This document shows, piece after piece, positions 14,723-28,747 of a stretch of 64,000 nucleotides of DNA. A model generated the notes under the pieces. That model was given only the letters and a program-made list of their open reading frames with translations. It was not told where the DNA came from and searched no databases. Made by a program: the position numbers and the translations under genes. The DNA is from Actinomycetota bacterium (GTDB lineage: Bacteria; Actinomycetota; Thermoleophilia; Solirubrobacterales; Solirubrobacteraceae). Each line of letters starts with the position of its first letter. Within the stretch, counting starts at the first letter, position 1. The stretch is taken from contig VAWK01000050.1 in the NCBI GenBank assembly GCA_005885515.1, positions 23,784 through 87,783 on the forward strand. Direction: 5' to 3'.

Positions 14723-14786
14723 AGCGGGCCACGATAGCGGTGCCTGAACGCGGATGGCCCCGCTGCGCGCGTTACCTTGCGTGCGC

Positions 14787-15818
14787 ATGCGCGTGTGGAT
14801 CGACCTGACGAACAGCCCGCACGTGCTCGTGATGCGGCCGGTGATCGAGCGCTTGCGCGCGGCCGGTCATGAGGTGCAGGTGACCTCGCGGGACTACGCG
14901 CAGACGATCGCGCTGTGCGAGCGGCTGGGCATCGCGCACACGCCGATCGGCCGTCACCGCGGGGAGCGCTTGGCGGCCAAGGCCTCGGGCCTGGTCTCGC
15001 GCTCGCTCGCGCTGGTGCGATGGGCTCGCCGCGAGGCGCGCGCGCACGGCCGCTTTGACATCGCTCTGGGCCACGGCTCAAACGACGTCTGCGTGGCGGC
15101 GGCGGCGTTGCGCGTGCCGAGCGCCACGATGTTCGACTATGAGTGGGCGACCGTTCAGCACAACCTCAACTGTCGCCTGGCGCGGGCGGTGGTGGTGCCC
15201 GAGGCGATCCCGCCCGAGCGGCTCGAGCGCTTCGGAGCTCGGGGCAAGCTGCGCCGCTACGAGGGCCTGAAGGAGGAGTATTACCTCGCCGACTTCGAGC
15301 CCGACGCGGCGGTGGCGGGCGAGCTGGGGCTCGATCGGGGGCGCCCGATCGTGGTCGTGCGCACGCCCCCCGAGGTGTCTCTGTATCACCGCTTCGGAAG
15401 CGAGCTGTTCGAGCGGGTGCTCGCCCGCCTGCGCCTGGCGGCCGCCGAACGGGGGGTGCAGCCGGTGGTGTTGGCGCGCGTGGACTCCCAGCGGGAGCGG
15501 CTGGCGCGCGAGCCGGGCCTGATGGTGCCGGAGAAGGCGATCGACGCGCAGTCGCTGATCTCCTACGCGGATCTGGTGATCTCGGCGGGCGGCACGATGA
15601 ACCGCGAGGCGGTGGCGCTGGGCGTGCCCGTGTTCAGCACCTTCGCAGGACGTCTGGGCGCGGTGGACGAGCGGCTGATCGGCGAAGGGCGCCTGCACAG
15701 GCTGCTCGACGCCGACCAGCTCGACCTGGGCTTCGGCGCGAAGCCGCGCTCCCAGGCTCGCGTCAAGCGCGACCCGGGCGTGCTGGTGCGGCTGCTCTTA
15801 TCTCCTCTCATCCCCTGA
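14787..15818 (+). CDS. DUF354 family, GT-B-like protein
   Basis: About 343 residues, beginning MRVWIDLTNSPHVLVMRPVI, the hallmark of DUF354. The fold is expected to be two Rossmann domains like UDP-GlcNAc 2-epimerase/glycosyltransferases; ISYADLVISAGGTMNREAVA matches the nucleotide-sugar-binding GGTM(N/T)REA element. The ATG at 14787 starts at the conserved domain; the track's start adds eleven unrelated residues. It heads the polysaccharide locus and may act on an activated sugar, but no member's reaction is clear to me. Confidence 0.85.
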   Translation: MRVWIDLTNSPHVLVMRPVIERLRAAGHEVQVTSRDYAQTIALCERLGIAHTPIGRHRGERLAAKASGLVSRSLALVRWARREARAHGRFDIALGHGSNDVCVAAAALRVPSATMFDYEWATVQHNLNCRLARAVVVPEAIPPERLERFGARGKLRRYEGLKEEYYLADFEPDAAVAGELGLDRGRPIVVVRTPPEVSLYHRFGSELFERVLARLRLAAAERGVQPVVLARVDSQRERLAREPGLMVPEKAIDAQSLISYADLVISAGGTMNREAVALGVPVFSTFAGRLGAVDERLIGEGRLHRLLDADQLDLGFGAKPRSQARVKRDPGVLVRLLLSPLIP

Positions 15819-17980: not shown

Positions 17981-19636
17981 ATGACCCCCTCGCTGCTGGC
18001 ATTTTCGCTCTCGAACTCCTTCGCAAAGGTCGGAGCGGTCGCCGCCTTCGTGGCACTGGTGGGCATCGCGGTCTTGTCGCTGCTGTCGTTCTCGCAGGCA
18101 CGCGAGCTCAAGCGCCTGCGCGAGTGGGCGGGCCGGGCGCCCGAGCGCGCGGCCGAGCTCGAGCAGAGGGTGGGCGCGATTTCCGCAGCCCGCGTCCAGC
18201 GGACAGATGCGCCGGCGCCACAGGCGCGGGCGCCGCAGCATCCAGTCCCGGGCGCCCGCCCGCCCGGCGCGAGTCAGGTCCCGGGCGCCGATGCCTCTCC
18301 CGCCACAGCGGCGATGGCCGCGCAACCCGCCACGGCGGGCGCTCCCGCGATCGCCGGCTCTCCCGCCACGGCTGCATCGGCGGGCCCAGCGGCCGCTCCG
18401 GCCACGGCCGCGGGCATCGCCTCGGCGGCCGCGCCCGCCTCGGCCGCACCGCCGGCAACGGCAGTTCCGCCCGGCTCGGTGGACGCTTCGCCAGCCGTCG
18501 GCGCCGACCCTGCCCGGCCGGGCAACCACTCGGCGCAGTCCGCGCCGCACGCCGGCGGAGCCGCGACGAGCGCACCGCTCGCGGCCGCAGGCGAGGGCCA
18601 GGCCGCCAGGCGATCGGCAGCGACGGTCGCCGTGACCGCAGCCTCGGCCGCCTCGGCCTCGACGGCGCGGGCGCCGGTGTCGCCGCCCGCGCCAGCGGCG
18701 AGCACCCCACCGGCCTCAACCCCTGGCGCGATCCTGTCCGGCTCGAGCCCACCGGCCTCCGCCCCCGGCGCGCCCCAGGGTGCCGCAGCCGGTGATGAGG
18801 CCACTGCTAACCCGCCGCGCTCGGTCGCGAGCCAGCCGGCCGCCGCCGTGCCGGCGTCGAACGGCCCCGTTCCCGCTGCGCACGCGCGCGGGACGGTCGC
18901 GGATGGCAGCGCCGACGCGCCCTCCCGCGCCCCCGCGACCGCTGCCGCGAGCGCAGTCACGGGCGCCAGCGCGCGCCCGCCGCTGCCGCCCCCGCCTTCC
19001 GAGCCGCCCCGGCGCCGCGTGCCCGCAGGCGCGGAGCTGGCGGCCGATCCGATCGCGCCCGGCGCAGCCCCCTCGCCGCTGACGCCAGAGCAGGCAGCTG
19101 TGCGGGCTGCCCGCCGCCGGCGCGCGCGGGAGCCGAGGGGCTCATCCAAAAGAGCGGCGGTGATCGCCGGAGCCTTGCTCGCGGGAGCGGCAGCGGTGGT
19201 GATCGGCGTGCTCGCGCTCGGCGGGGGCTCGGCTGCCCGCAAGAGCGCTTCGGGCTCCGCGCCGACGCACCACGCGCGCGCCAAGCAAGTGAGATCGCCC
19301 AGGGCAAGACACGCTTCCGCCGCCTCCTCGAGGGCGGCGGCCACGAGCGTCGCTGTGCTCAACGGCACGGAAACGAGCGGGCTCGCCCACCGCGTCTCGG
19401 GCCAGCTGCACCAGCAGGGCTACGCGCGGGCGGCGGCCCTGAGCGGGCGCCCGCCCGGCGCCAACCAGTCCACCGTGGTGGAGTACGCGAGCGGGCACAA
19501 GAGCGATGCCGAAGGCATTGCGCGCGCACTCGGGGTCTCGCGGACAGAACCGATGGAAGCCACGGTGTCGTCGCTGGCGAGCTCGGCGAGCGTGGTGGTG
19601 ATCGTGGGCCTCGACAAGGCTGCGGCAGGGCCCTAG
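17981..19636 (+). CDS. Two-helix membrane protein with LytR_C domain and long Ala/Pro linker
   Basis: About 551 residues from ATG 17981; the track's start at 17585 lies within the preceding gene. An N-terminal transmembrane helix (AVAAFVALVGIAVLSLLSF) and a short coiled-coil-like segment lead into about 330 residues almost entirely Ala, Pro, Ser, Thr and Gly. A basic stretch and a second helix (VIAGALLAGAAAVVIGVLAL) follow. The C-terminal domain (about 460-551) is LytR_C-like: TSVAVLNGTETSGLAHRVSG and SVVVIVGLD. LytR_C often accompanies wall-polymer ligases, but no LCP domain is present here. Confidence 0.8.
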   Translation: MTPSLLAFSLSNSFAKVGAVAAFVALVGIAVLSLLSFSQARELKRLREWAGRAPERAAELEQRVGAISAARVQRTDAPAPQARAPQHPVPGARPPGASQVPGADASPATAAMAAQPATAGAPAIAGSPATAASAGPAAAPATAAGIASAAAPASAAPPATAVPPGSVDASPAVGADPARPGNHSAQSAPHAGGAATSAPLAAAGEGQAARRSAATVAVTAASAASASTARAPVSPPAPAASTPPASTPGAILSGSSPPASAPGAPQGAAAGDEATANPPRSVASQPAAAVPASNGPVPAAHARGTVADGSADAPSRAPATAAASAVTGASARPPLPPPPSEPPRRRVPAGAELAADPIAPGAAPSPLTPEQAAVRAARRRRAREPRGSSKRAAVIAGALLAGAAAVVIGVLALGGGSAARKSASGSAPTHHARAKQVRSPRARHASAASSRAAATSVAVLNGTETSGLAHRVSGQLHQQGYARAAALSGRPPGANQSTVVEYASGHKSDAEGIARALGVSRTEPMEATVSSLASSASVVVIVGLDKAAAGP

Positions 19637-19701
19637 CCGACGCCGGCGACCATCCGATAGCCGACTTCCTCGACATTCCCGAGCGCTCCTCCAAGCCGCG
19701 C

Positions 19702-20436
19702 GTGCGCGGCCTCACGCACGTGATCGACCGCGGGCTGTCGGTCGCCGAGATCGACAACCTGCTCGAGGTCGCGGGGGAGTGCGTGGACGTCGTCAAGCTT
19801 GGCTGGGGCACGGCGCTCGTGAGCGCCAACCTGAAGCAGAAGCTCGAGCGGTACGCCACGCACGAGGTTCCGGTGGTGCTCGGAGGCACGCTCACCGAGC
19901 TCGCCATCCGGCAGGGTCGCATCGAGGGCCTGATCGGGTGGCTGCGCGAGCTCGGCCTGCGCCACGTCGAGGTCTCGGACGGCACGATCGCGATCGACCC
20001 TGAGTTCAAGCGCGATCTGATCCAGCGGCTGGCGCAGGAGTTCACGGTGCTGGCCGAGGTCGGCAGCAAGGACGTCGACTTCATCATGGCTCCGTACGTG
20101 TGGGTGGAGCAGATCCAACGCGACCTCGACGCCGGCGCGTGGAAGGTGATCGCCGAGGCGCGCGAGTCGGGCACAGCCGGCATCTACCGTGCCACCGGCG
20201 AGGTGCGAACCGGTCTGATCGACGAGATCGCGCACGCGGTCGACCCCGACCGCCTGATCTTCGAGGCGCCACGGCGCGAGCAGCAGGTGTGGCTGCTCAA
20301 GCGCTTCGGCACGGAGTGCAACCTGGGCAACATCGCGCCACAGGATGTCCTCTCGCTCGAGACCCTGCGGCTTGGCCTGCGGGCGGACACCGTCGATCGG
20401 TTCGCCCTGGGGGATCGTGGATCGGGCGACGATTGA
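19702..20436 (+). CDS. comA: Phosphosulfolactate synthase (ComA family)
   Basis: At least 244 residues. The family adds sulfite to phosphoenolpyruvate to form phosphosulfolactate, the first step of coenzyme M synthesis in archaea and of sulfolactate in some bacilli. Motifs: GLTHVIDRGLS, DVVKLGWGTA, VPVVLGGTLTE, HVEVSDGTI and VLAEVGSKD. GTG 19702 is the first canonical start, but homologous-looking residues (ADFLDIPERSSKPR) precede it in frame with no ATG/GTG/TTG back into the previous gene. A non-standard start such as ATA or ATT is therefore possible. No comB/comC neighbours are visible. Confidence 0.88.
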   Translation: MRGLTHVIDRGLSVAEIDNLLEVAGECVDVVKLGWGTALVSANLKQKLERYATHEVPVVLGGTLTELAIRQGRIEGLIGWLRELGLRHVEVSDGTIAIDPEFKRDLIQRLAQEFTVLAEVGSKDVDFIMAPYVWVEQIQRDLDAGAWKVIAEARESGTAGIYRATGEVRTGLIDEIAHAVDPDRLIFEAPRREQQVWLLKRFGTECNLGNIAPQDVLSLETLRLGLRADTVDRFALGDRGSGDD

Positions 20437-20933
20437 CCAGCCCGGATAGGGCTCTCGCGGGCGCCGACAGGGCGGCCGGCGCGGTCTTCGCCCTGCTGGT
20501 GGCCGCCTGTTTCGCAGCCTTCTTCGTTACGCAGCGCCTGAAGCACACGCCCACGCTCGTGCAGCGCTTCGAGCTGACCCCGTTCTTCTCGCCGACGCCC
20601 GCGGGCCACGTTAAGCGCGAGGCGATCTCGTTCAAGCTCGCGCACGCCGACGAGGTCACGGTGACGATCGTCGACTCCACCGGCAGCGACGTGGCGACGC
20701 TCCTGCGCGATCGCTTCGTGACCCGCTACAAACAGTTCTCCCTGCGCTGGAACGGCCGACTTGGCGTGGCGCACGGCTTCACGTTCGTCGGCACCGCCGC
20801 TGGGCGCTCGGTGCTGCTGCCGTCCAACCACGGCCCGCTGGCCCCCGCGGGCGAATACCGCGTGCGCGTGAGTTTGCGCGGGCAGCGGCGCGCGGTCCTC
20901 TCCCCGCGCAGCTTCACGCTGGTGAGGCGTTGA
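20433..20933 (+). CDS. Membrane-anchored FlgD-like Ig-domain protein
   Basis: About 166 residues from TTG 20433, whose TTGA overlaps the comA stop. One N-terminal transmembrane helix (AGAVFALLVAACFAAFFVT) precedes an extracellular beta-sandwich. EVTVTIVDSTGSDVATLL, LRWNGR and AGEYRVRVSLRG follow the pattern of FlgD-like Ig domains. Function is unknown; it sits between comA and the polymerase gene and its TTGA stop is shared with the next start. The track shows it only as the tail of a longer shadow ORF. Confidence 0.7.
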   Translation: MTSPDRALAGADRAAGAVFALLVAACFAAFFVTQRLKHTPTLVQRFELTPFFSPTPAGHVKREAISFKLAHADEVTVTIVDSTGSDVATLLRDRFVTRYKQFSLRWNGRLGVAHGFTFVGTAAGRSVLLPSNHGPLAPAGEYRVRVSLRGQRRAVLSPRSFTLVRR

Positions 20934-22384
20934 GCACGGCGGCGCCGCGGCTGCCCGGAGCGACCACGCTCGGCTCCGGTCTCGTGCTGGCCGCGGTGGC
21001 AGCGGCGCTCCTGCTGGCGCCGCTGGTGCTGCTGATGCGCCGCGACCCGCGGGCCTTTCCCCTGCTCGCGCTGTTTGCGCTCCCCTTCCGGCTGCCCGTG
21101 TCGGCGGACGGCCGTACCGTCAACCTGCTCATTCCCCTGTACATCGTCGTGTCCGCCGGCACGCTCGCGCACCTCCTGCCGCGCGCGCAGCAAGCGCTCG
21201 CGCGGCAGCGCTCACACCACGCCGGCAGCGCCGCGCCGGCCCCCGCCGCGACCTGCCCGGCAGGATCTCGGTACGGCGGAGCCGACCGTTGGCAGCGGCG
21301 CCTGCGCGCGCTGCTCACGCCGCGCGGGCTGCAGTGGCTGCTGATGGGGTCGGTCGCCCTGTATGCCGTCCAGGCGCTGTACTCGCCGGACATCGCCAAG
21401 GCGGGTGAGAACGTCGCCTTCTTCTATCTGCCGTTCACGCTGCTGTTCCTGCTGCTGCGCGACGTCCGCTGGACGCGCCAGCTGCTGCTGGCCTGCCTCG
21501 CCGTCGTGGTCGCGCTCGCCGTCATATTCGCCGGGATCGGCTTCATCGAGTACGGCCGCAAGACGCTGTTCTTGAACCCCAGGGTGGTGGCCGCAAACCA
21601 GTACGACAACTACTTCCGCGTCAACTCGCTGTTCTTCGACCCCAACGTGTACGGCCGCTTCCTGGCGCTCGTGATGATCGCTCTCACCGCCTTCGTGCTG
21701 TGGCGCTCTCGTCGCCGCGACGTGATCGCGTGCGTGGCCGTGCTGGCCTGGCTGCTTGCCGGGCTCGTGACGAGCTTCTCGCAGAGCAGCATCGCCGCGC
21801 TGCTGCTCGGGCTCGCGGTGCTCGCCGCGTGGCGCTGGGAGCTGCGCGCGACGCTCTATGCGGCCGGTGCGCTCGTGGCGCTCGCCGTGGTCATCGTGCT
21901 GGCTGCGCCGAGCAGCCTGCATTTCGGACTCAAGGGCTCCGGCGGGTCGGCGAGCAACGCGACCAGCGGGCGCACGAAGCTGATCGCCGGCGGCCTGGAA
22001 CTGTTTGCCGAACGGCCGCTCCAGGGCCATGGGTCGGGCTCGTTCGAGCGCTCCTACAAGGCGCACCACCTCGCCTCCGGCGCCCAGAACGCGACCTCGG
22101 CATCGCACACGATTCCGGTCACGGTCGCGGCCGAGCAGGGACTGCTCGGTCTAGCGCTCTATGCGGCGCTGCTCGTCGCAGCCTTCACGGTGCTCTTCAG
22201 CGGCGCCGGTCGCTCGCCGCCGCGCGTCGCGATCGCCGCGTGCTTCGCCGCGCTCGTGCTGCACACGTGGACATACGCCGACTTCCTCGAGGACCCGCTC
22301 ACCTGGACGCTGCTGGGCATCGGCGCGGCGCTCGCCCGCGCCAGAGGGGGTGAACGGTGCTTGGCTACCTCAAGCGGCTCCTGA
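20930..22384 (+). CDS. O-antigen ligase/Wzy-like polymerase
   Basis: 484 residues, about 11-12 hydrophobic segments, TTG start overlapping the previous stop. The large loop between late helices contains SLHFGLKGSGG, GRTKLIAGGLELF and GHGSGSF, as in the Wzy_C/O-antigen ligase family, and it carries HTIPVTVAAEQGLLGLALY near the C-terminus. It probably polymerises or ligates the glycan repeat at the outer face of the membrane. A charged loop at about residues 85-120 is variable. Overlap with the flippase gene supports joint expression. Confidence 0.87.
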   Translation: MSTAAPRLPGATTLGSGLVLAAVAAALLLAPLVLLMRRDPRAFPLLALFALPFRLPVSADGRTVNLLIPLYIVVSAGTLAHLLPRAQQALARQRSHHAGSAAPAPAATCPAGSRYGGADRWQRRLRALLTPRGLQWLLMGSVALYAVQALYSPDIAKAGENVAFFYLPFTLLFLLLRDVRWTRQLLLACLAVVVALAVIFAGIGFIEYGRKTLFLNPRVVAANQYDNYFRVNSLFFDPNVYGRFLALVMIALTAFVLWRSRRRDVIACVAVLAWLLAGLVTSFSQSSIAALLLGLAVLAAWRWELRATLYAAGALVALAVVIVLAAPSSLHFGLKGSGGSASNATSGRTKLIAGGLELFAERPLQGHGSGSFERSYKAHHLASGAQNATSASHTIPVTVAAEQGLLGLALYAALLVAAFTVLFSGAGRSPPRVAIAACFAALVLHTWTYADFLEDPLTWTLLGIGAALARARGGERCLATSSGS

Positions 22385-27162: not shown

Positions 27163-27752
27163 TCCGCCGGCTGGTCGACATCGCGGTCTCGGCCGCGGCC
27201 CTGTCGCTGAGCGCACCGCTGCTGCTGGTGGCGGTGCTGGCGATACGCATCGAGTCACGCGGCCGCGCGATCTACCGGCAGCGGCGGGCGGGCAAGGATG
27301 GGGTGCCCTTCGACGTGTACAAGCTGCGCACGATGGTCGACGGCGCCGAGCACGTCGGCGCCGGACTGGCGGTCAACGCGAACGACTCGCGCATCACCCG
27401 CGTGGGCGCCCTGCTGCGCCGCACCTCGCTGGATGAGCTGCCCAACCTGCTCAACGTGCTGCGCGGCGAGATGTCGCTGATCGGCCCGCGACCCACGCTG
27501 CCGGTGCAGGTCGCGCAGTACACCGGGCGCCAGCGCCGGCGCCTGGAGATCAAGCCCGGCATCACCGGATGGGCACAGGTCAACGGTCGCGCGTCGCTGC
27601 GCTGGGCCGAGAGGATCGAGCTCGACCTGTACTACATCGAGCACCGCTCGCTGGCGCTCGACTTGAAGATCCTCGCGCGCACCCCGGCGATGGTGCTCGG
27701 CGGGAGCGGTGTGTACAAGGGACAGGCGGGCGGCTGGGAGGGCCGGCTGTGA
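27159..27752 (+). CDS. Priming sugar transferase (bacterial sugar transferase family)
   Basis: About 197 residues, GTG 27159 overlapping the previous stop. One N-terminal helix (VDIAVSAAALSLSAPLLL), then YRQRRAGKDGVPFDVYKLRTM, LRRTSLDELPNLLNVLRGEMS, IGPRPTLP and PGITGWAQVNGR, which is the complete signature of the family. It transfers a sugar-1-phosphate to undecaprenyl phosphate, the first committed step of repeat-unit assembly. It is a short form without the N-terminal multi-helix domain; the CapD protein upstream supplies a plausible nucleotide sugar. Confidence 0.93.
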   Translation: MIRRLVDIAVSAAALSLSAPLLLVAVLAIRIESRGRAIYRQRRAGKDGVPFDVYKLRTMVDGAEHVGAGLAVNANDSRITRVGALLRRTSLDELPNLLNVLRGEMSLIGPRPTLPVQVAQYTGRQRRRLEIKPGITGWAQVNGRASLRWAERIELDLYYIEHRSLALDLKILARTPAMVLGGSGVYKGQAGGWEGRL

Positions 27753-28747
27753 GCCGCGCGGCGGTGCTGCTGACGGGAGTCGGCAAGCGCTATGACATCG
27801 TCTCGTGCTTTGCCCGCCTGACCAACACGCTCGCCGCCGATCCCTCGCCGCTGGCGCCGGCCCAGTACGCCGCGCAGGTGCGCTGCGAGGTCCCGCTGAT
27901 CGGCGACCCGGGCTACGTGCCCGCGCTCGAGCGCCTGTGCGAGCAGCACCGCGTCGGGGCGGTGCTGCCGCTGACCGACCTGGACATCGTCGTGCTCGCC
28001 GAGGCCCGCGCGCATGGCCGCCTGCCGGCATTCGTGCCCTCGCCCGCGGTCGCGCGGGCGACGTATGACAAGTACGAAGCCCACCTGCTGCTGGGACGGT
28101 TGTCGCTCCCGTCGCCTCCGACAGCGTTGCCGGAGGACGATGACGACGGGCTGAGCTACCCGGTGATGGTCAAGCCCCGGCGCGGTTCGGGCGCGCGCTC
28201 GATCCATCTCGCCCACGATGCCGCACAGGCGCGCTTCTTCGCCGACTACATAGCCGAGCCGGTGATGCTCCAGCAGGCGATGGCGGGGCCCGAGCTGTCC
28301 ATCGACTGCCTCGGCGATCTGGACGGGCGCTGCATCAACGCGATCCCGAGGACGATGCTCGAGTCGCGCGGCGGCGAGTCGATCAAGGGCGCAGTCGTAC
28401 GCGACGAGGAGCTGATCGAACTCGGGCGGAGCACGATGGAGGCGCTCGCGGTGACCGGGCCGGCGACGATCCAGGTATTCCGCGATCCGGAGCTCGGCCT
28501 GAGGATCACGGACGTGAACACGCGTTTTGGCGGCGCCTTCCCGGCACCCACATACGCCGCCCTGCCGGGCCGCACCTACCCCGAGCTGATCGTGGCGATG
28601 GCCTCCGGCGAGACGGTCGAGCCGCACGTGGGCGAGTTCCGCGAGGGGACGACGTTCACCCGCTACTACTGGCAGCTGGAGCTCGACGAGCGGCTGTCGC
28701 CGACGGGCCGTGACGTCGTGCCCGGCGGTCCGCCGCCTCCGCGCTAG
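27749..28747 (+). CDS. ATP-grasp carboligase-like protein
   Basis: About 332 residues from GTG 27749. RAAVLLTGVGKRYDIVSCF is a glycine-rich N-terminal Rossmann-like strand; YPVMVKPRRGSGARS, GPELSIDC and LRITDVNTRFGGAFP are ATP-grasp nucleotide and metal sites, as in carbamoyl-phosphate synthase-like proteins. Such enzymes in polysaccharide loci add amino-acid or other acyl groups to sugars. The exact substrate is unknown. Last intact gene of the operon; the GTGA overlap with the sugar transferase supports co-translation. Confidence 0.85.
   Translation: MSRAAVLLTGVGKRYDIVSCFARLTNTLAADPSPLAPAQYAAQVRCEVPLIGDPGYVPALERLCEQHRVGAVLPLTDLDIVVLAEARAHGRLPAFVPSPAVARATYDKYEAHLLLGRLSLPSPPTALPEDDDDGLSYPVMVKPRRGSGARSIHLAHDAAQARFFADYIAEPVMLQQAMAGPELSIDCLGDLDGRCINAIPRTMLESRGGESIKGAVVRDEELIELGRSTMEALAVTGPATIQVFRDPELGLRITDVNTRFGGAFPAPTYAALPGRTYPELIVAMASGETVEPHVGEFREGTTFTRYYWQLELDERLSPTGRDVVPGGPPPPR

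What the first reader, a model, noticed from the sequence alone, without database searches (positions are those of the whole stretch)
19637..20436. Phosphosulfolactate synthase in a polysaccharide locus, with no canonical start for its conserved N-terminus
ComA is known from coenzyme M or sulfolactate synthesis, but no pathway partners are nearby and the gene is embedded between wall/polysaccharide genes. Family-like residues continue upstream of the first GTG with no ATG/GTG/TTG in frame, suggesting a rare start such as ATA or ATT. A sulfonated surface glycan or metabolite is one speculative role.
Basis: partly seen in the sequence, partly recalled or inferred. Interest (0 to 1): 0.55.

Follow-up and report, generated by a model that had tools for sequence, protein, structure and literature searches.

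The report
ComA gene with conserved ATA start
A gene for a sulfite-fixing enzyme (ComA family) in an uncultured soil actinobacterium starts with the very rare codon ATA, which is kept at the same spot in many related species, and the enzyme travels with a ligase gene that suggests an uncharacterised sulfonate pathway linked to cell-surface sugars.

Summary
Window 19657-20436 encodes a full-length ComA-family (phosphosulfolactate synthase) protein with no in-frame ATG/GTG/TTG upstream of its conserved N-terminus. Comparison settles the start: ATA 19657. Eleven of 18 congeneric orthologues have ATA at this codon, ten with no other usable start, and sister lineages have ATG, GTG or TTG at exactly that position. 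In most relatives ATA overlaps the stop of the upstream LytR_C gene (ATAG), and no Shine-Dalgarno motif is seen, so termination-reinitiation is the likely mode.

The polysaccharide context is real but incomplete. DUF354-CapD-LytR_C-comA is conserved across much of Solirubrobacteraceae. No coenzyme M pathway is found. The partner that does follow comA is an ATP-grasp ligase (window 27749-28747): of 220 Thermoleophilia genomes, 75 have both, 40 comA only, 2 ligase only; in the window's family 20/20 versus 0/23, while the neighbouring Wzx gene shows no such link. Elsewhere comA sits beside sulfate-to-sulfite genes. A phosphosulfolactate-derived building block joined by the ligase, possibly onto a surface glycan, is the best reading. 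Enzyme activity, start use and product are untested. AUA starts have precedent, so this is a new variant of a known kind.

The parts
19657..20436 (+). comA-family phosphosulfolactate synthase gene, start codon ATA (259 codons plus TGA)
   Evidence: PF02679 288 bits full length; 1u83/1qwg homologues; Foldseek TMq 0.85 to 1qwg; ATA aligned with ATG/GTG/TTG starts of relatives
19657..19659 (+). ATA start codon (ATAG context)
   Evidence: conserved in 11 of 18 genus orthologues, no alternative canonical start in 10 of them
17981..19636 (+). upstream LytR_C-domain membrane/wall protein; stop TAG 19634-19636, residual in-frame TAG 19658-19660. In nine relatives its stop is the TAG of ATAG
   Evidence: PF13399; stop positions
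20433..20933 (+). secreted FlgD-Ig-like protein, start TTG overlapping comA stop (TTGA)
   Evidence: no Pfam hit in the window copy; homologue in L099 hits FlgD_ig
20930..22384 (+). O-antigen ligase/Wzy-like protein, start TTG overlapping the upstream stop (TTGA)
   Evidence: PF04932
22357..23901 (+). Wzx-like flippase
   Evidence: PF01943
15838..17964 (+). CapD-like nucleotide-sugar dehydratase/epimerase
   Evidence: PF02719; synteny
14781..15818 (+). DUF354 glycosyltransferase-like protein
   Evidence: PF04007; synteny
27749..28747 (+). ATP-grasp ligase (PylC-like N-terminal domain), the co-occurring partner of comA
   Evidence: PF21360, PF15632, PF02655; co-occurrence; directly follows comA in eight loci

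Best explanation
The gene is an intact comA-family phosphosulfolactate synthase whose start codon is ATA at 19657. It is translated in an operon behind a LytR_C-domain gene, most likely by ribosomes that terminate on that gene and reinitiate at the weak AUA, which would keep ComA output low. The enzyme is inferred to add sulfite to phosphoenolpyruvate, giving (2R)-phospho-3-sulfolactate. The product does not go to coenzyme M; it is inferred to feed a module with an ATP-grasp ligase, which would join the carboxylate to an amine. In this family the module sits inside a surface-polysaccharide cluster, so the end product may be a sulfonated decoration of, or precursor for, that glycan. Shown by sequence: the start position, the synteny, the absence of CoM partners, the ligase co-occurrence. 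Inferred: reinitiation, enzyme activity, ligation, glycan destination.
For: ATA aligns with ATG, GTG or TTG in sister lineages. ATA is 4/199 Ile codons in the comA bodies and 6/184 in window genes, yet shared at codon 1 by 11 species; no other of 250 codon columns ends in A in all 11 rows, and only 10 of 80 four-fold columns are invariant, none A. Conservation switches from the LytR_C frame to the comA frame at ATA (identity 0.60 vs 0.45 upstream, 0.84 downstream). Eleven other gene families in the same loci have canonical starts nearly throughout, against 9 of 18 comA copies without one. ComA fold and full-length match. Cluster conserved. comA and ATP-grasp: 75 both, 40 comA only, 2 ATP-grasp only, 103 neither, Fisher 2e-26 (no correction for relatedness); 20/20 vs 0/23 in the family, while Wzx is in nearly all of those 23. 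comA beside Sat, CysC and CysH in L099, L113, L124, L126. No comC in 23/24, no comD over cut-off, comB only beside another paralogue. CysH-type genes present in 23/24.
Against: No protein, ribosome-profiling or enzyme data exist. The score is below the archaeal ComA equivalog cut-off (249 vs 280 bits). In the window species the upstream stop lies 20 nt before ATA, so overlap coupling is not intact there. Predicted order in residues 1-20 is only moderate (block means 65 and 78 pLDDT), and GTG 19702 would keep the first barrel strand. One ATA locus, L004, has upstream in-frame GTGs, so its start is ambiguous. Forty comA-bearing genomes lack a strong ATP-grasp hit.
Confidence: 0.68

Rival explanations
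1. Translation starts at the canonical GTG 19702, giving a 244-aa protein, and the upstream similarity is untranslated relic.
For: It is the first ATG/GTG/TTG in the frame; strand 1 of the barrel begins only at residue 20 of the ATA product.
Against: That GTG is absent in all other orthologues; the start would remove residues R10, K13, P14, R15, which are invariant in 19 orthologues, and the motif shared with YitD. In other ATA species the next canonical codon is TTG at L19 (L008, L018) or GTG at V22, just before or inside strand 1.
Confidence: 0.08
2. The ATA is only a by-product of a conserved TAG stop of the LytR_C gene; comA starts at some other near-cognate codon or by frameshift from LytR_C.
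For: Nine of 11 ATA loci use the TAG as the LytR_C stop; the comA frame is open far upstream in some species.
Against: The first A of ATA is the third base of a sense codon of the upstream gene (mostly CCA, 8/305 Pro codons in window genes) and is A in 11/11; the window has an earlier LytR_C stop and L004 has TAA, yet both keep ATA. L007 has an in-frame stop 10 codons upstream. comA-frame residues upstream are less conserved than the LytR_C frame. Relatives have ATG/GTG/TTG at the same codon.
Confidence: 0.08
3. ComA here belongs to a coenzyme M or free sulfolactate pathway unrelated to glycans; its position in the polysaccharide operon is only co-regulation.
For: In other Thermoleophilia comA lies with sulfate-reduction, fumarase-like and flavoprotein genes, or just with ATP-grasp, without polysaccharide genes.
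Against: comC and comD are missing and comB occurs in 3/24 congeners, beside another paralogue. comA keeps its place next to LytR_C, CapD and FlgD/Wzy genes across much of Solirubrobacteraceae, and FlgD- and Wzy-like genes also follow the sulfate-assimilation/comA cluster in L099 and L113.
Confidence: 0.35
4. The protein has the ComA fold but another substrate (for example a different enolpyruvyl compound or another nucleophile than sulfite).
For: Below the TIGR03849 cut-off; divergent ComA-like paralogues exist in the same genus.
Against: The GGTL, SDG, EVG, RESG, FEAP, Q, LxN and ETLRxGLRxDT blocks match 1u83 and 1qwg closely; sulfite-producing genes flank comA in related lineages.
Confidence: 0.2

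Closest known systems
B. subtilis YitD (PDB 1u83) and M. jannaschii ComA (PDB 1qwg), phosphosulfolactate synthases
   Same: Fold, full-length sequence match, conserved blocks, and the N-terminal P.R..KPR..G motif of YitD
   Different: No comB/comC/comDE route; ATP-grasp partner; polysaccharide cluster; ATA start; score below the archaeal equivalog cut-off
AUA start codons of S. aureus infC and ccpN (PMC13009471)
   Same: A conserved AUA start; the non-canonical starts measured there gave about 10-30% of AUG expression
   Different: Those have extended Shine-Dalgarno pairing; here no SD signal above shuffles in nearly all loci, and the codon overlaps the upstream stop (ATAG) in most relatives. 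infC of this genus starts with GTG
Translational coupling by termination-reinitiation at ATGA or TGATG junctions (PMC6728339)
   Same: Four-base stop/start overlaps: ATAG at comA in relatives, TTGA, ATGA and GTGA at other junctions of the cluster
   Different: The start is AUA, not AUG; the window copy has a 20-nt gap instead of the overlap

Membership tests
ComA / phosphosulfolactate synthase family (PF02679) | Full-length match over the curated cut-off | tested here: met
   288 bits, profile 1-243 of 243, cut-off 25.2
ComA / phosphosulfolactate synthase family (PF02679) | ComA barrel fold | tested here: met
   AlphaFold model, pLDDT 85; 1qwg TMq 0.85, 1u83 TMq 0.81
ComA / phosphosulfolactate synthase family (PF02679) | Phosphosulfolactate formation from PEP and sulfite | not testable with these tools
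   No biochemistry; conserved blocks only
Archaeal ComA equivalog (TIGR03849) | Score over the equivalog cut-off of 280 bits | tested here: not met
   249.2 bits
Coenzyme M biosynthesis pathway (ComA-ComB-ComC-ComDE) | ComB, ComC and ComD in the same genome | tested here: not met
   Own genome (92% complete): ComB only beside the divergent paralogue on contig C27, ComC none, ComD none
Conserved non-canonical (AUA) start codon | Conserved ATA at the position of canonical starts in relatives, no in-frame alternative | tested here: met
   11/18 genus loci; ATG/GTG/TTG at that codon in sister lineages; alternative GTGs upstream in L004 only
Conserved non-canonical (AUA) start codon | Extended Shine-Dalgarno pairing, as in the S. 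aureus cases | tested here: not met
   Duplex energies within shuffles for nearly all ATA loci
Termination-reinitiation coupled gene pair | Stop/start overlap or very short gap | tested here: met
   ATAG overlap in 9/11 ATA loci; 20-nt gap in the window
Termination-reinitiation coupled gene pair | Downstream translation depends on upstream translation | not testable with these tools
   Needs reporter experiments

The most novel reading that the evidence does not exclude
Thermoleophilia build a sulfolactate-bearing surface glycan: ComA fixes sulfite onto PEP and the co-occurring ATP-grasp enzyme joins the resulting sulfo-acid to an amino group of the polysaccharide or its precursor, with ComA dosage throttled by a lineage-conserved AUA start coupled to the LytR_C gene.
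Probability: 0.22. Interest if true: 0.75.

Novelty: new variant of a known kind. Interest (0 to 1): 0.52.

Why it matters
Gene callers that allow only ATG/GTG/TTG mis-start such genes, and few conserved AUA starts have been documented. This one has a clear comparative signature and a stop/start overlap instead of a Shine-Dalgarno, so it makes a testable case of weak-start reinitiation. The comA/ATP-grasp pairing points to an uncharacterised sulfonate pathway in a large, mostly uncultured soil class, with a cultured relative (Conexibacter arvalis DSM 23288, locus L069) in which to test it.

Tried and rejected
IF3 autoregulation as a model: infC of the genus starts with a canonical GTG. A Shine-Dalgarno that would rescue ATA: none above shuffles in nearly all loci. 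Frameshift fusion with LytR_C: rejected on L007, frame conservation, and canonical starts in relatives. Assembly error: the ATA loci come from MAGs of different projects. Coenzyme M pathway: partners missing. Ligase co-occurrence as a mere echo of the polysaccharide locus: the Wzx control does not behave so. Paper searches for sulfolactate with polysaccharide in actinobacteria, and for sulfoacrylic acid with coenzyme M, gave nothing useful. Bacterial CoM synthesis through sulfoacrylate is known to me from memory only and was not tested.

Full report
Observation. The frame ending at TGA 20436 is open far upstream, but its first ATG/GTG/TTG is GTG 19702. The reading upstream of it, IADFLDIPERSSKPR, is family-like: phmmer aligns residues 9-252 of the translation (P0001, which starts at 19639) with B. 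subtilis YitD (1u83, 1.4e-51), including the P.R..KPR..G stretch.

The start codon. Orthologues were found in 18 genus loci and in G037 of another family of the order. In 11 of the 18, the codon matching window 19657-19659 is ATA. Ten of these have no upstream in-frame ATG/GTG/TTG within the open frame; L004 has three upstream GTGs and is ambiguous. Three congeners have GTG and one ATG at the same place (the GTG group is one codon shorter), and three have no start there but upstream GTGs. In 80 further loci, with organism names and partly the same genomes, this position is regularly ATG, GTG or TTG in Solirubrobacteraceae and Conexibacter. ATA therefore sits where relatives initiate.

Is it more than chance? 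ATA makes up 4 of 199 Ile codons in the bodies of these 11 comA genes and 6 of 184 in window genes. Four-fold sites differ by 0.42 on average between pairs; 10 of 80 four-fold columns are invariant, none of them A, and codon 1 is the only one of 250 columns ending in A in all 11 rows. The species are related, so these are not 11 independent events; on the comA tree the ATA label needs two changes, which fits one gain in the genus and later replacement by GTG or ATG. The loci stem from MAGs of different projects. Eleven other gene families in the same loci have canonical starts nearly throughout, against 9 of 18 comA copies with none.

ATA or merely TAG? In nine ATA loci the four bases ATAG hold both the comA start and the TAG stop of the upstream LytR_C gene. 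If only the stop mattered, the first A, a third codon position of LytR_C (mostly CCA, 8 of 305 Pro codons in window genes), would be free to drift to G or C, but it is A in all 11. The window has an earlier LytR_C stop (TAG 19634) and L004 has TAA, yet both keep ATA. Conservation also changes frame at this point: 0.60 identity in the LytR_C frame and 0.45 in the comA frame upstream (with in-frame stops in two species), 0.84 downstream.

Mode of initiation (inference). No Shine-Dalgarno pairing exceeds shuffles in nearly all ATA loci. Other junctions of the cluster are four-base overlaps: TTGA 20433, TTGA 20930, ATGA 25999, GTGA 27159, GTGA 27749. Such overlaps couple translation by termination-reinitiation (PMC6728339). 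AUA starts of infC and ccpN in S. aureus are documented; the non-canonical starts measured there lower expression to about 10-30% of AUG, but with extended SD pairing (PMC13009471). infC in this genus has a normal GTG. A separate lineage, L104, also lacks canonical comA starts and has a CTGA overlap at the homologous position, so stop/start overlap at comA seems to tolerate weak starts.

The protein. PF02679 matches over its full length at 288 bits. The AlphaFold model (pLDDT 85) is closest to 1qwg and 1u83, TMq 0.85 and 0.81. The NCBI archaeal equivalog model is not reached (249 of 280 bits), so it is filed as a ComA-family protein, not as the archaeal equivalog. The activity is inferred.

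Pathway. In 24 genus genomes ComC-type dehydrogenase is found once, ComD never over cut-off, and ComB three times, each beside a divergent ComA-like paralogue (window genome: contig C27). No CoM pathway is therefore evident, with the caveat of incomplete genomes. Sulfite supply is plausible: CysH-type genes occur in 23 of 24.

Neighbourhood. DUF354, CapD, LytR_C, comA, FlgD-like, Wzy-like and Wzx-like genes keep their order in the genus, and the DUF354/CapD-LytR_C-comA part largely across Solirubrobacteraceae, including Conexibacter arvalis DSM 23288. In eight other loci comA is followed by an ATP-grasp gene, without polysaccharide genes detected; the orthologue of that gene lies at 27749-28747 of the window. 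Over 220 Thermoleophilia genomes of at least 85% completeness, 75 have both, 40 comA only, 2 ATP-grasp only and 103 neither (Fisher 2e-26, not corrected for relatedness); within the window's family it is 20 of 20 against 0 of 23. Wzx is present in nearly all of those 23, so the link is not a by-product of having a polysaccharide locus. In L099, L113 and L126, and partly in L124, comA stands between flavoprotein plus fumarase-like genes and CysH, CysC and Sat, followed by TauE in L099, L113 and L126, with FlgD-like genes in all four and Wzy-like genes in three. That is what a sulfite-consuming synthase would need, and it again joins comA to glycan-type genes.

Synthesis. Best reading: ComA makes phosphosulfolactate, and the ATP-grasp enzyme uses it or a derivative to form an amide-type bond. 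In the window's family this is tied to a surface polysaccharide; elsewhere the same unit may serve another end. Fumarase-like and flavoprotein partners suggest, by analogy with malate-fumarate-succinate, that sulfolactate may be dehydrated and reduced in some lineages; this is speculation.

Verdict. It is a new variant of known kinds (rare AUA starts, bacterial ComA pathways) rather than categorically new.

Noticed in passing
L104:5992-5994: comA of a Solirubrobacteraceae MAG lacks ATG/GTG/TTG; CTG at the homologous site overlaps the stop of the preceding gene (CTGA), an apparently independent non-canonical start.
   Followed up: partly
L047:10403-12819 (own genome, contig C27): A divergent ComA-like paralogue, a ComB gene and an ATP-grasp-like gene stand together inside a second polysaccharide cluster (Wzy_C, Polysacc_synt, deacetylase, CpsB_CapC).
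   Followed up: partly
L099:3322-12757; L113:3285-12460; also L124, L126: Cluster of flavoprotein, class I fumarase-like subunits, comA, PAPS reductase, APS kinase, ATP sulfurylase, TauE, FlgD-like and Wzy-like genes (not every gene seen in each locus): a candidate sulfonate-synthesis operon.
   Followed up: partly
L101:4742-6780, L117:3146-5172 and others: A SdhA/NadB-like flavoprotein gene overlaps comA, with a LysR gene upstream, in many Thermoleophilia.
   Followed up: no
L022, L023, L024, L027/L028: A third ComA-like family in some congeners (RPAKPRTRGVTEIRGPYYS...); in G003 it is split between two adjacent matches (L027/L028), possibly by a frameshift.
   Followed up: no
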